A DNA stretch of 64,000 nt from Closterium sp. NIES-65. Lineage: Eukaryota > Streptophyta > Zygnematophyceae > Desmidiales > Closteriaceae. The notes below the pieces were generated by a model. It ran no database searches and was not told the origin of the DNA. It saw nothing but the letters and a program-made list of their open reading frames with translations. The position numbers and the translations under genes were made by a program. The stretch spans positions 372,001 through 436,000 of the forward strand of contig CANXME010002549.1 in NCBI GenBank assembly GCA_948144175.1, in the 5' to 3' direction. This document shows positions 14,982 to 49,047 of this stretch, piece after piece (within the stretch, counting starts at the first letter, position 1; each line of letters starts with the position of its first letter).

Positions 14982-15812
14982 GCCACCCCCCGGGGGTGCC
15001 AGATTGGTTTCCCTCAGGGCCACGTGGGCCGGGTCACGATGGCGAGGGCATCGGGCCTCCTCTCCGCCCTTTCCTAGCAGGGAATGGGACGTCCTCGACC
15101 CGAATAGAGTGATGCCACTGCCTAATCACAAAAACAGGGGGGTTGGAGGGGTTCTAGGTTGGAGCTTGCGTCAAGTCATACCTCTAGTAAAACCCCTCTC
15201 CCTCGTCTATCCTTCCTCTCGTTCATCTCGCTTCCTACCTCAGATCAGAATTGCTGGCGAGGGCGCCCCCACTAACCACCTTCGTTGGCGGCGTTGCTTG
15301 ATTACTGATTCAGAAAATTGCGGGAACGCGCTGTATGAATATCCTGGATTTCAGAGCACTCGAATCGCGGAAGCCTGAGCGGCTTCAGCCGTGGGAGCGT
15401 CAACATGGTGAGCGTCAACATGGTGAGCGTCGCACACAACTTTGGTCCTTCCAGAGTTAATTCTGGATGCGGTATACAAAATTCGAGCGAGTTGGTACCT
15501 TAGCTCTGGTTTTCTTGATCGTCCATCCAACGCGCTGAATCTTGCTTCCTTTGGAAGACAGACACGAAGGCTGCCTTGATTGTCATCCAAACCTTCCATA
15601 CTGTTCCCTAGGTGACTTTTGAGTCGACTCAAAAGTCACCGTCATCGTTTATCCAACACGCTGAATCTTGCTTCTGTTGGAACACAGACACGAAGGTTGG
15701 CTTGATTGTCTTCCAAAACTTCCTTGTTCCCTTCGCTCCAAAGTTTTCTCCCTACTCTTCTCTGACCTTTCCTGCTCTGTTCATCTGCTAGGGTTTCAAC
15801 AAGGAGCCGCCA
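14982..15812. other. host-like interval with a local duplication and a palindrome
   Basis: No gene is identified here. A segment of about 82 bp (about 15516-15597) is repeated at about 15643-15723 with about 85 percent identity by eye. A perfect 30-bp palindrome centred on GAGTCGACTC lies between the copies at 15611-15640. The sequence upstream of 15813 is pyrimidine-rich and could be a 5' untranslated region. Confidence 0.5.
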
Positions 15813-43945: not shown

Positions 43946-44353
43946 GTGCGCTTCTGTCGTATCAAAATCCAAGGTACCAAGCGAAGCAGTCCCAATCGAA
44001 GCATCGAGTCAACCTCGGAGGTTAGGGTAACCGCCTGGAGGTTACGAGAAAGTCAAAGGTCGCTGACCTTTGACTCGACAATTACAGCGCGACAGTTAAG
44101 GACACACAACTGACTCGTTACAGAGCAGTTGCCCGAGTCGCGCTATATCGAACCGCAACAGCAATACAGTTATCTATCTATTCCCTGTACTCTTATATAA
44201 ATCCTTGTATTTGCTTGTTTAATTCAATCAACTTTGCTCTCACACACCAGTGCAAGGTCGGTTCAAATTCTTCACTAAACGCTTCCGCTATTACAACTAC
44301 TTCACCTAGAGTTATCCCTTGCAAAGATCCTAAGGGGCTATCTCAGCCCAACA
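43924..44353 (+). repeat. 3' LTR of element K
   Basis: 430 bp, indistinguishable by eye from the 5' LTR, preceded by GAAGCGAAGGGGAG as the polypurine tract. Both strands are coding at its edges: the gag-pol stop is at 43943-43945, and on the opposite strand the glutathione S-transferase frame ends at 44338-44340. Confidence 0.95.
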
Positions 44354-47300
44354 GAGCAGACGAGCATGCCCTTGGCTGTGAGAGGGCGCGCCATGCAACG
44401 ATCCTTCCACTCCAAAACCCGAGGATAGGACGACAGATGCAGCTGGTCATCCGCTTTGTAAAACACCTGAAGAAAAACACAAGCAGTACATTATCAAGTA
44501 TTACTGCATTTAACATAGTACATGCCTTAGTCAAGAGACAATGTACCATAAGCCTGGAGTCGCAGCAAAACTAGCTGTGAGAACAGCCCACCACCAGCGA
44601 ACTAGCCACAAAAGCCACCCACCCTGCCAAACCCACCCACCCACCTGCAGCGAGTTGACCCAGGGGAAGATGGCCATGTCAGCGATGGTGTGCCCCGCAT
44701 CGATGAGGATCTCCCTCCCCTCCAGCCGCATTCTCCAGTCGCAACCACAAGCATACCAACTGAACCACCCACCCACCCAGAGCAAGCTGATAACCAAGTA
44801 ACGCACCCACCCGGCCCACACCCACGCACCTGCAGCGAGTTGACCCAGGGGAAGGTGGCCATGTCAGCAATGGTGTACCCCGCATCCACCAGGAACTCCC
44901 TCCCCTCCAGCCGCTTCTCCAGCACCCCCAGCAGCCGCCGCGTCTCCTCCGTGTAGCGCTGCAGGGGGTACGGGTGGTCGCACTGCTCCCGTGCAAACTT
45001 GTAAAACATGCCGAACTGGAGGAGAGGGGAAAGAGAGGAAGAAGGGGATGTGGAAGAGGGGGGGAGGGGGGAGGAGAAGGTAAAAATTGGCAAGGTCAAA
45101 GTACACTAGAGAGAATATGGGTGGTCACATTACGTCAATTTCGCTTGGAGAGGTTTGCGGAGTACGGGAAGTGGAGAATGCAACGCTCATCGTAAAACCA
45201 GCGACCGGTTGATCCATGCGTTTTTTGAGAGACCAGCTTGAACGTCATCACCGCAAAGCTTATGAACCGGCTGGTCGCTGGTTCCACGATTACCGCAGCA
45301 TCCTCCACTTCTCCATAATTCGCAAACCTCTTGATTTTGTTATCACTATCTATCCTCATGTTTTGCTCTTCGGGTTCACACTCCTAGCAAGCGAACTTGT
45401 ACTTAATGCCAAACTGTCAAAGAGGAGAGGGAAAAAAAAAGGAGGAAGTTGATGGAGGAAAAGGCACGAAGGAGGAAGAGTTGAGTATTATTTAAACGAA
45501 TTCCATATGCTGAAGAGCGTACGGATGGTTGCAGTAATTGGACAACGGCCTCCCACTTTGAGTAACTTTCTCTTACCAGACCCTCGCTTACCGAACCTCA
45601 CATCACCTGACCAGCTCTTATCTTACCTGCTCTTACCGAACCGGAATCACCCTGGCCCTCTCTTACCGAACCTGCACTCACCTGACCTGCTCTTCAACGG
45701 TGCTTTCACTCGACCTCTTGACTGTAAAACGATAGGCCCAAGGCATTGTGTGGTGAAAGGTGTGTTCAGCATCTGCAGTGGTCCCAGCGTCTCCAGAAGT
45801 TTCAGCATTTACCACGCAAGTTGGACAAATAGAGACGAGAGCTTACGAGGAAATTCTTGGCACATCAGATAAAACACCTCACATGGCCGAACATGGTTCA
45901 CACAACAGGCATCTCACCCAACCAGACATGATTCCCACATCAGACATCCTTCCTGGTCAAAGATACGTCCGCCTAATATCCCTCACCTGGCCGAACAGGA
46001 AACACACACCTGGCCGAACATGGGTTCAACACTGAACACCCCACCTGGCCGAACATGGGTTCAACACTGAACACCCCATCTGGCCGAACATGGGTTCAAC
46101 ACTGAACACCCCACCTGGCCGAACATGGGTTCAACACTGAACACCCCACCTGGCCGAACATGGGTTCAACACTGAACACCCCACCTGGCCGAACATGGGT
46201 TCAACACTGAACACCCCACCTGGCCGAACATGGGTTCAACACTGAACACCCCACCTGGCCGAACATGGGTTCAACACTGAACACTCCACCTGGCCGAACA
46301 TGGGTTCAACACTGAACACCCCACCTGGCCGAACATGGGTTCAACACTGAATATTTCACCTGGCCGAACATGGGTTCAACACTGAACACCCCACCTGGCC
46401 GAACATGGGTTCAACACTGAACACCCCACCTGGCCGAACATGGGTTCAACACTGAACACCCCACCTGGCCTAACATGGGTTCAACACTGAACACCCCACC
46501 TGGCCGAACATGGGTTCAACACTGAACACCCCACCTGGCCGAACATGGGTTCAACACTGAACACCCCACCTGGCCGAACATGGGTTCAACACTGAACACC
46601 CCACCTGGCCGAACATGGGTTCAACACTGAACACCCCACCTGGCCGAACATGGGTTCAACACTGAACACCCCACCTGGCCGAACATGGGTTCAACACTGA
46701 ACACCCCACCTGGCCGAACATGGGTTCAACACTGAACACCCCACCTGGCCGAACATGGGTTCAACACTGAACACCCCACCTGGCCGAACATGGGTTCAAC
46801 ACTGAACACCCCACCTGCCCGAACATGGGTTCAACACTGAACACCCCACCTGGCCGAACATGGGTTCAACACTGAACACCCCACCTGGCCGAACATGGGT
46901 TCAACACTGAACACCCCACCTGGCCTAACATGGGTTCAACACTGAACACCCCACCTGGCCGAACATGGGACCAACGCCGCCCACTTGGAAGAAGAGCCAG
47001 GAAATGGTCTCCCATCGCTGCACGGCATCCTGCGGCAGAAACTTGCCCGACTTCTCCGCCAGATACAGCAGGATCGCCCCGCTCTCAAATATCTTCAAAG
47101 GGGTGCCACCTGGTGGGAGGGCAAACAGGAAAATCTATTAATATTCGGGTGTCGAGATGTCTCGAACCTTCTCCGCCAGATACAGCAGGATGGCGCCACT
47201 CTCAAATACCTTCAATGGGATGCCGCCTGGTGGGAGGGCGAACAGGAAAACACATATGTAATCCGGTGTTGAGATGCAGAATGAGAATAGTGAACTGCGC

Positions 47301-48546
47301 CAGAAGCAATCACTGATCCTACATTGAGCAACCCAGATCGAGATAAAACTATAAGCATCGGACAGAGACTGCGGTACCGCTGTCTCTTGACACATTACAT
47401 ACAATCGCGTCACCTGGGCCTGCCTTGGGATCCACGATGGCAGGGATCTTGTTGTTGGGGTTGATTGCAATGAATTCCCGGTTGAACTGCTCGCCCTTCA
47501 TTATGTTCACCATGTGCGCGTCGTATGGCAGCTGCATCTCCTCCAGAGCGATGCTCACCTGAAGGGTGAGGGAGAGAGGGAGAGAAGGAGAGAGTGATAA
47601 GCAATACAAGATCTTCAGACGCACATACACTGCCGTGTGTGCGTCGTTTGACAGCTGCATCTCCTCCTGAAGGGAGAGCGAGAGGGAAATAGAGGGGGAG
47701 TGATAGGTGATACACAGTCTTCAAAAACAAACACAATTATAATTCACAGTGTGTGCATCGTTTGACAGCTGCATCTCCTCCAGCGATGCTCACCTGAAGA
47801 GAGAGGGAGAGGGAAAGCGACAGAAAGAGAGGGAGATAGATACGCGATAAGATCTTCAGACACAGAAACAATCACCGTGTGCGCGTCGCATGGTAACTGC
47901 ATCTTCTCCAGATGCAAAGCTCACGTGAAGGGAGGGGAAGAGAGAAAGAGGAAGTGAGATAGGTGAGACAAGATACTGTATCACGGTGAGAGCATACGAA
48001 GGGTGGATGCAAACTCAAGGCGAGGGACGAAACGAACGAGAGACATGGAGTGTGGCGAAAGCCATAGATCGTGAATACCGTTACACGCACCTTCATGCCA
48101 TTGGGAGTGGCGAAAGAGTAGAGCTGGATGCGCGACGACGCGTCATCGCCAAGGCTGACACGATCGTCCGCAATACCCGCAACTTGCTGCCCTTGCGCCA
48201 TGGAGGAAAATACTCTTGTACCCGAGAAGCAAGAAACACCTCGCTTTCTTTCTGCTCCTCTGGTAGCGCTTAACCTGCCTGACACCCGCACGCCTGGATT
48301 CTTGCGCGAGAACGAAAGGCACGTTCTAAGGGATGGAGAAGCAAGAGCAGCGACGACAAACGGAATACGAGGATTATGGATAGGTGCGGTTCGGATCATG
48401 CTGGCTGGTACGGGTTCGCAAAATTCGCTCAAAACGGACGACGACGACAGAAAACGGCTGTGCTGAAAGACAGGAAGTGGCTTCAGAGACCTAACCAATC
48501 CAACTGGCGAGAAATTTCGAGAAACGAAACCTTGAGCTCCGACCAT
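44338..48546 (-). CDS. glutathione S-transferase, YghU/Ure2p-like, five exons
   Basis: The predicted exons are 48546-48091, 47558-47414, 47109-46955, 45015-44830 and 44466-44338, all with GT-AG introns and matching phases, giving 356 residues. Residues 1-135 are Ser/Arg-rich and resemble an organelle transit peptide. The thioredoxin-like domain begins at [13 protein letters not shown] and includes [30 protein letters not shown] (cis-Pro loop) and [19 protein letters not shown]. The helical domain has [41 protein letters not shown] and [17 protein letters not shown]. Members of this family use glutathione, often as disulfide reductases; the plastid or mitochondrial site is inferred. Element K replaced the original ending (CSP then stop) with CSVGLR then stop. 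The start is the ATG at 48546. Splicing is predicted, not observed. Confidence 0.85.
44645..44742 (-). repeat. extra copy of exon 4 end plus donor in intron 4
   Basis: This region reads [19 protein letters not shown] then IFPWVNSLQ and ends CTGCAG followed by GTGGGTGGG. It duplicates the last third of exon 4 (ending at 44830, CTGCAG then GTGCGTGGG) including the splice donor, displaced by 185 bp. Its start is not preceded by a clear acceptor in phase, so it is probably not used as a full exon. Confidence 0.8.
45151..45315. repeat. inverted repeat made of RRM-coding fragments in intron 3
   Basis: Two arms of about 55-65 bp (about 45151-45205 and 45255-45315) are inverted copies, about 75-80 percent alike by eye. 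The minus-strand arm translates as [20 protein letters not shown] followed by [10 protein letters not shown], the pattern of an RNA-recognition motif. The plus-strand arm reads RFAEYG then, after a one-base shift, [13 protein letters not shown]. This is a fragment of an RRM gene, not a functional gene here. The loop is about 50 bp. Confidence 0.6.
46003..46969 (-). repeat. 35-bp minisatellite spanning the exon 3 donor, about 27 units
   Basis: Head-to-tail units of 35 bp run from about 46003 up to the exon 3 splice donor at 46954-46955, with few variants (for instance GGCCTAACA at about 46470 and 46924 and CTGCCCGAACA near 46816). On the gene's strand each unit contains CCATGTTCGGCCAG then GTGGGGTG, the last bases of exon 3 and the start of intron 3. 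The array is thus a serial copy of the exon-intron junction. More degenerate relatives lie at 45880-46000. Confidence 0.95.
47168..47226 (-). repeat. extra copy of exon 3 start plus acceptor in intron 2
   Basis: This region reads [20 protein letters not shown] and is preceded by CCCTCCCACCAG, as is the true exon 3 start at 47109 ([20 protein letters not shown]). The copies are 117 bp apart. It ends AAG then GTTCGAG. Splicing it ahead of exon 3 would break the reading frame, because it ends in phase 0 and exon 3 begins in phase 1. Confidence 0.85.
47626..47926 (-). repeat. three extra copies of exon 2 start in intron 1
   Basis: Degenerate copies of the acceptor and first 45 or so bases of exon 2 (CTTCAG then GTGAGCATCGCTCTGGAG) start near 47926, 47794 and 47669, at steps of about 111-132 bp to the true exon at 47558. 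The first has CAC instead of CAG, the others keep CAG, and the third lacks the first 15 or so exon bases. Each is followed by a related TCTTCAGACGCA stretch. Confidence 0.82.
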
Positions 48547-49047
48547 GGCTGACAGTGCTATGCTCTTATGATCGTTTCCTCCTGCCACTGCTTCACCGTC
48601 GCTACGCTTCTCTAAGGTTGCTTCCTCGAAATCATCGCCTTCCTCGTGCTCGCCTTTCGTCGATCCCCATGGAGTCGTCCACCTCGGAGAAACAGCACAA
48701 CAGAACTGGCGGCGCGACAGTCATGGCAGTGACACATTCAGTAGCTAACCGTCAGACCTCCATGCCTCAGGTCTTCGGGTGCTGATGCTGGCAAATAAAG
48801 ATTCGCCAAGAGGACCCGAGCCGGTAAGAAACAAGAGAAACAAAACACATATCACGAATATCATGCCACCTTATTCGGATACAAGCACATATCTCACAGT
48901 TTTCCATGCAACCCCTTACCCCTTCCTCTCAACTCAGGTAAACATAGGATATTCGACTCATCGTACGACAAAATGCAGCAGAATAATTTGTTAGAGTATG
49001 TTTTTGTGCATATGTTAATAAGTAGCAGCGTTGGGGTTTGCGAGCAC
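48547..49047 (-). promoter_or_regulatory. probable promoter region of the glutathione S-transferase gene
   Basis: About 500 bp between the start codon and the MITE. I see no coding region, no convincing TATA box and no strong repeat. It is assigned as promoter and 5' untranslated region by position only. Confidence 0.35.

What the first reader, a model, noticed from the sequence alone, without database searches (positions are those of the whole stretch)
44645..47930. Every intron of the glutathione S-transferase gene carries extra copies of a neighbouring splice junction
Intron 1 has three decoy copies of the acceptor plus exon 2 start, intron 2 one decoy of the acceptor plus exon 3 start, intron 3 a 27-unit array of exon 3 end plus donor, and intron 4 a decoy of exon 4 end plus donor. 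All duplications cross an exon-intron boundary and sit beside the true site, in steps of 35 bp or about 110-185 bp. The only in-frame path I find skips every decoy. Tandem duplication of AGGT-containing segments is a known route to new introns; four separate cases in one gene suggest that route is unusually active here, or that decoys tune splicing.
Basis: partly seen in the sequence, partly recalled or inferred. Interest (0 to 1): 0.82.

Follow-up and report, generated by a model that had tools for sequence, protein, structure and literature searches.

The report
Exon-edge copies crowd this genome's introns
The glutathione transferase gene's introns really are littered with extra copies of the neighbouring exon edges, but so are the introns of the unrelated genes examined in the same genome, which points to frequent short tandem duplications that splicing hides rather than to anything special about this gene.

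Summary
All four introns of the minus-strand Ure2p/YfcG-type GST gene (44338-48201) carry copies of an adjacent exon edge, far above shuffled introns; the intron 3 array has 27 units of 35 bp. It is not gene-specific: a paralogue, a diverged copy at the matching place of a second contig, and chaperonin and proteasome genes of the same 874 Mb genome show it. In seven annotated genes or gene stretches, 38 of 78 intron sides hold a copy of the adjacent exon edge (controls 0 of 78 and 0 of 400). Upstream copies never reach the exon end (0 of 38). Splice-site crossing is in moderate excess over intron-only duplication at 85% identity but not significantly at 90%, so survivorship (splicing removes the extra copy) may explain most of the siting. 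Little suggests that decoys tune splicing. One result does not fit simple drift: exon and copy differ about 5 times more at 4-fold than at 0-fold sites (95% interval 4.2-6.1); a free decoy allows about 2-2.5. The copies probably diverged as coding sequence before being joined, as if exchanged between diverged homologues. The mechanism is inferred; there are no transcripts. A single case of boundary-crossing tandem duplication is in print; my searches listed none at this scale.

The parts
48091..48201 (-). GST exon 1 (from the inner ATG; the open frame runs further up, possible start near 48546)
47414..47558 (-). GST exon 2 (begins GTGAGC right after CAG)
46955..47109 (-). GST exon 3
44830..45015 (-). 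GST exon 4
44338..44466 (-). GST exon 5
47872..47924 (-). intron 1 decoy 1: copy of exon 2 start, acceptor changed to CAC
   Evidence: 45/53
47736..47793 (-). intron 1 decoy 2: acceptor intact, 2-nt deletion (by eye) shifts the frame
   Evidence: 50/60
47633..47670 (-). intron 1 decoy 3: exon 2 positions 12-49
   Evidence: 33/38
47168..47224 (-). intron 2 decoy: copy of exon 3 start, reading frame open
   Evidence: 51/57
46007..46969 (-). intron 3 array, 27 units of 35 bp, each repeating exon 3 end plus donor
44645..44738 (-). intron 4 decoy: copy of exon 4 end plus donor
   Evidence: 86/94
45168..45311 (.). imperfect inverted repeat in intron 3 (57-nt arms, 74% complementary), foldback-like, not exon-derived

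Best explanation
Genes of this genome suffer frequent short tandem duplications (copy-to-copy offsets mostly about 100-250 bp). A duplication that crosses one splice site leaves one intact exon with its splice site, and the extra exon edge ends up inside the intron, where splicing removes it; duplications inside exons change the protein and are lost. Introns therefore fill with exon-start copies upstream and exon-end copies downstream of each exon. SHOWN: the copies, their polarity, their presence in other genes, controls of zero, and a silent-site excess over what a free decoy allows. INFERRED: that splicing ignores them; that survivorship explains most of their siting; and that many were made by unequal exchange or template switching between two already diverged functional copies (alleles or paralogues such as A and A'), so that exon and decoy differed at silent sites from the start.
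For: Seven genes or gene stretches, 39 introns: 18 of 39 acceptor sides and 20 of 39 donor sides hold a copy; controls 0 of 78 (reverse complement) and 0 of 400 (wrong exon). Polarity: of 38 upstream copies 32 hold the exon start and 0 the exon end; of 35 downstream copies 27 hold the exon end and 3 the exon start. Profile searches show partial duplicates in 3 of 11 CCT/cpn60 clusters and 4 of 17 proteasome clusters, clusters counted by eye with haplotype contigs merged; four CCT/cpn60 genes with none visible there still had copies on 25 of 54 intron sides. Six of those seven clusters show the duplicate on two contigs (C170/C1865 on one only), which speaks against assembly error. 4-fold 245/915 against 0-fold 191/3544, ratio 4.97 (4.15-6.09); 245 changes against 170.8 expected, largest of 2000 simulations 205; ratio 10.2, 5.3, 4.0 from most to least similar copies. 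The excess was noticed in the first 51 copies (ratio 4.64) and recurs in the 22 added later (6.44). Diverged functional pairs exist here: A and A' differ at 23 of 117 4-fold and 11 of 465 0-fold sites. Exon exchange happens: A-B dS is 1.24, 1.33, 0.157, 0.416 and about 3 for exons 1-5.
Against: In 21 of 36 copies that I listed by hand, the intron side of the junction shows no significant homology, which plain tandem duplication predicts only if intron flanks turn over fast. Inner ends of left and right copies of one exon tend to meet (17 exons, median gap 33 nt, permutation p 0.007), which independent duplications do not predict; but of the 7 exons added after I had the idea only 1 lies within 30 nt. 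GT is kept in 15 of 15 donor copies (p about 0.008). The two contigs' copies of gene B look nearly identical by eye, so the diverged partners must often be past alleles or lost paralogues. Grouping copies by identity partly builds in the trend of the ratio.
Confidence: 0.5

Rival explanations
1. Plain slippage or break repair within one DNA molecule: exact tandem duplication, then the decoy drifts freely while the exon stays constrained.
For: Intron-side homology of 40 nt or more in several copies (for example A intron 1 and intron 2, L040 exon 2); duplications of 90% identity or more are not significantly off uniform placement; array length differs (27, 5, 2, 0 units).
Confidence: 0.2
2. Duplication aimed at splice sites, for example through RNA or through CAGGTG microhomology, so breakpoints fall at exon ends.
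For: A' intron 2 holds a copy of the whole of exon 2 fused CAG to GTGAGC with no intron between; homology stops at the junction in young copies such as L041 exon 3, L041 exon 4 and L040 exon 1; excess of crossing duplications at 85% identity.
Against: 15 of 36 copies carry intron homology past the junction; no significant excess at 90% identity (p 0.14 or 0.07); polypyrimidine tracts align poorly even when related.
Confidence: 0.17
3. Decoys are kept because they tune splicing.
For: GT kept in 15 of 15 donor copies, 11.0 expected; decoy acceptors often keep pyrimidine tracts (by eye).
Against: AG retention 13 of 16, as expected by drift; frame distances 10 of 31 multiples of 3; decoy number and place differ between A, A' and B.
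Confidence: 0.07
4. Intron gain by tandem duplication of AGGT segments is under way.
For: Known route (PMC3443670 passages); exon 2 starts CAG|GTGAGC, a possible donor and acceptor.
Against: Exon structure is the same in A, A' and B; the 73 copies lie beside existing introns by the way they were sought, and I did not search systematically for introns made of a duplicated exon segment.
Confidence: 0.05
5. Assembly artefact.
For: Large repetitive assembly of 2400 contigs.
Against: Duplicates recur on two contigs in six of seven clusters, and copies differ from their exons, mostly by 5-20%.
Confidence: 0.01

Closest known systems
Boundary-crossing tandem duplication in the potato RdRp gene (PMC4974935; abstract and section 5 read)
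   Same: Tandem copy of intron 3' end plus exon start, with acceptor and pyrimidine tract carried along.
   Different: There one event gave a new intron, confirmed by RNA reads; here tens of copies, no new intron seen, no RNA.
[quoted passage not shown] passages read)
   Same: Short tandem duplications with AG|GT at junctions.
   Different: The model duplicates exon interior and splices between the copies; here copies sit in existing introns and appear to be skipped.
Tandem duplication after paired nicks or patched breaks in plants (Schiml and co-workers; Vaughn and Bennetzen: recalled, not held in the library)
   Same: Short duplications, sometimes with filler between copies (recalled).
   Different: Not tested here; silent-site divergence of copies is not part of that picture as I recall it.
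Introners (PMC9860276; two passages read)
   Same: Genome-wide change in introns.
   Different: Introners are similar introns in many genes; among 41 introns compared here, those of different genes share only a short palindrome.

Membership tests
[quoted passage not shown]
[quoted passage not shown]
   A, A' and B have the same five exons; no outside orthologue was available
Introner elements | Near-identical introns across unrelated genes | tested here: not met
   41 introns compared; cross-gene hits at E 1e-5 are only the short palindrome
Mutually exclusive duplicated exons | Whole exon copies with both splice sites, in frame | tested here: not met
   0 of 38 upstream copies reach the exon end; of 35 downstream copies one is a whole exon with gaps (A' exon 2) and two are nearly whole copies of a 69-nt exon (L042 exon 7)
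Mutually exclusive duplicated exons | Alternative use in transcripts | not testable with these tools
   no RNA data
Recursive splicing sites | CAG|GTRAG in the intron used as successive splice points | tested here: inconclusive
   motif present in intron 1 decoys of A, A' and B because exon 2 begins GTGAGC; use not testable
Minisatellite | Homogeneous short tandem array with variable copy number | tested here: met
   intron 3 array: 27 units in A, 5 in B, 2 in the second copy of B, 0 in A'

The most novel reading that the evidence does not exclude
Exons of this genome are replaced one by one. A break in the middle of an exon is patched with a segment carrying a complete copy of the same exon and its splice signals, taken from a diverged homologue; the two halves of the old exon remain on either side as decoys, and introns become a stratified record of past alleles. 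(Probability lowered from my first 0.2 because the meeting of left and right copies did not hold well in the 7 exons added later.)
Probability: 0.13. Interest if true: 0.92.

Novelty: new variant of a known kind. Interest (0 to 1): 0.74.

Why it matters
If about half of the splice junctions in a genome sit beside a copy of their own exon edge, the spliceosome must pick the right one many times per gene, introns grow from exon-derived sequence, and gene annotation by homology will be misled. The copies form a natural experiment on how tandem duplication, splicing and selection shape introns, and dated copies would make rates of duplication and exon exchange measurable.

Tried and rejected
Functional decoys in GST alone: dropped as the main reading once other genes showed the same. 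Copies as remains of full duplicated exons: rejected by polarity. Repeated exon-decoy gene conversion as the source of the silent excess: rejected by reasoning only, since it would lower rather than raise silent divergence. Random sampling: 20 stretches of 10 kb asked for, 19 obtained, mostly retrotransposon-like; used only for a rough duplicate density. Rfam found nothing at gathering score in 44200-48700. The Ras family search gave, by eye, one clear partial duplicate (C1697/C1981) among 114 rows. Ten paper searches listed no paper that by title or start of abstract describes this pattern; two searches showed only 10 of 65 and 10 of 35 papers, so this is not proof of absence. The organism was not identified.

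The complementarity idea came from 10 exons (6 of 10 within 30 nt, permutation p 0.01); with 7 more exons it is 7 of 17 (p 0.044) and median gap 33 (p 0.007), so only 1 of the 7 new ones fits. In one search three of the 11 intron-only pairs turned out to join two exon-derived copies; the recount is.

Errors corrected on the way: exon 2 of gene B was one base off (fixed); exon 2 of L040 was one base off (fixed); the script stopped on an exon end of L044 (fixed). In one search exon 5 of A and A' was compared position by position although their last codons differ. Rows left out of the silent-site counts: the 35-bp arrays of A and B; the second copy of B (L010) was not used. L037-L039, L043, L045 and L046 were fetched because a duplicate was visible, so they enter the silent-site and complementarity tests but not the 38 of 78 count. 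Of the 11 CCT/cpn60 clusters four were fetched nearly whole and three in part; four were not fetched.

Full report
The finding. The gene is on the - strand; five exons give a 241-residue protein with GST_N and GST_C domains, closest in the PDB to bacterial Ure2p/YfcG-type transferases (4mf7, E 1e-75). No exon scored above the shuffles in a non-adjacent intron there.

Related genes. The 35-bp unit gave 17 matches at three places of the own genome (whose counts are lower bounds): gene A (the window), gene B 220 kb away on the same contig (L009), and a copy of B on contig C1702 that looks nearly identical (L010). A search with exon 1, intron 1 and exon 2 found a diverged copy A' on C1702 (80% over about 900 nt; L036). 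B carries two copies of exon 2 start in intron 1, an array of 5 units, a piece of exon 4 upstream of exon 4, and a copy of exon 4 end in intron 4, but nothing in intron 2. A' carries two copies of exon 2 start, a copy of the whole of exon 2 fused to exon 2 at CAG|GTGAGC, a decayed copy of exon 3 start shared with A, a longer copy of exon 3 end, two clean copies of exon 4 start that A lacks in that form, a shortened copy of exon 4 end, and no 35-bp array. So several of these events are younger than the A/A' split, and the same junctions were hit in more than one gene.

Beyond GST. A profile search for Cpn60_TCP1 showed partial repeats of one exon's profile range beside the exon in 3 of 11 gene clusters; proteasome subunits showed it in 4 of 17; clusters were counted by eye. 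Three such CCT exons were read and each is flanked on both sides. Four CCT/cpn60 genes with no visible repeat were then fetched nearly whole and annotated by open frame and GT-AG: L040 has copies on 9 of 14 intron sides, L041 on 6 of 10, L042 on 7 of 18, L044 on 3 of 12 (25 of 54); with A (4 of 8), A' (6 of 8) and B (3 of 8) this makes 38 of 78. The same alignment threshold gave 0 of 78 with introns reversed and complemented and 0 of 400 for exons of the gene that do not border the intron.

Rules. Among 73 copies from 13 loci, upstream copies hold the exon start (32 of 38) and never the exon end; downstream copies hold the exon end (27 of 35). This polarity is what a tandem duplication across one boundary gives. 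Exon-side homology is strong in all but one of 36 hand-listed copies, while intron-side homology is significant in 15, so part of the units include 40 nt or more of intron and part seem to stop at the junction. For 17 exons with copies on both sides the inner ends tend to meet (median gap 33 nt, p 0.007), most exactly in L041 exon 3 (1-101 and 93-204 of 204) and L040 exon 6 (1-60 and 63-152 of 152); L040 exon 5 is a clear exception (gap 278), and only 1 of the 7 exons added after the idea arose lies within 30 nt.

Is it aimed at splice sites? Uniform placement of duplications over the seven genes predicts 38-42% crossing a boundary. Observed: 27 of 38 at 85% identity or more (p 0.0003) and 11 of 21 at 90% or more (p 0.14); leaving out intron pairs that are both exon-derived, 27 of 35 (p 0.00003) and 11 of 19 (p 0.07). 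An exon-anchored copy stays recognisable longer, because only one side drifts; allowing a factor of two gives p 0.09 and 0.69 or 0.02 and 0.51. A moderate preference for splice sites is thus possible.

Silent sites. They differ 4.97 times as often, 4.35 times with base and CpG matched on the first 51 copies, and the most similar copies show the highest ratio, 10.2. The excess recurs in the 22 copies added later (6.44). 57 of 73 copies have no gap. Copies therefore behave as if both had been coding while they diverged. I read this as exchange between diverged homologous copies, before or at the duplication. A and A' are such a pair (4-fold 23/117, 0-fold 11/465), and exon 3, next to the array, has a dS of 0.157 between A and B where exons 1 and 2 exceed 1.2, a sign of recent conversion. 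The route is inference.

Function. Distances from decoy to true junction are multiples of three in 10 of 31 copies; acceptor AG is kept as drift predicts (13 of 16, 12.8 expected); donor GT is kept more than predicted (15 of 15, p about 0.008), one test among several. No RNA data were available.

Literature. Boundary-crossing tandem duplication has been shown in detail in a potato gene (PMC4974935, abstract and section 5 read), and tandem duplication is a recognised route to new introns (PMC3443670, passages read). My ten searches listed no description of exon-edge copies at this density (limits in Tried and rejected). Hence a new variant of a known kind.

Noticed in passing
L040 1793-1826, 2874-2976; L041 2093-2114; L042 2194-2239; window 15611-15640: Short palindromes TTTGAG-NNNN-CTCAAA (11 in 325 kb of sequence held, 9 of them in introns of L040-L042), with a variable core; 4 of 11 have exact direct repeats of 26-30 nt within 60 nt on both sides. 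They are the only sequence that introns of different genes shared.
   Followed up: partly
window 46955-47109 and L009 3728-3882: GST exon 3 beside the array has A-B dS 0.157 against more than 1.2 for exons 1 and 2, a sign of recent gene conversion between paralogues 220 kb apart.
   Followed up: partly
G000 C2251 about 419 kb and C1702 about 285 kb (L036): A and A' lie on two contigs that share nearly identical copies of gene B, yet differ at about 20% of 4-fold sites: a strongly diverged allele or a paralogue whose partner is lost.
   Followed up: partly
L009 3728 and L010 3973: Gene B exon 3 appears to use a GC donor (CAG|GCGAGT), followed by copies with GT.
   Followed up: no
window 45168-45311: Imperfect 57-nt inverted repeat in GST intron 3; the surrounding stretch aligns in part to A'.
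   Followed up: no
window 45572-45667: Five GGTAAG motifs within about 100 nt on the gene strand, distal to the array: perhaps old, diverged donor copies.
   Followed up: no
window 48202-48546: Open frame upstream of the inner ATG looks like an organelle transit peptide (by eye).
   Followed up: no
L024 (C1702:500001-510000): Twenty near-tandem duplicate pairs in 10 kb and no multi-copy open frames; a dense patch of local duplication.
   Followed up: no
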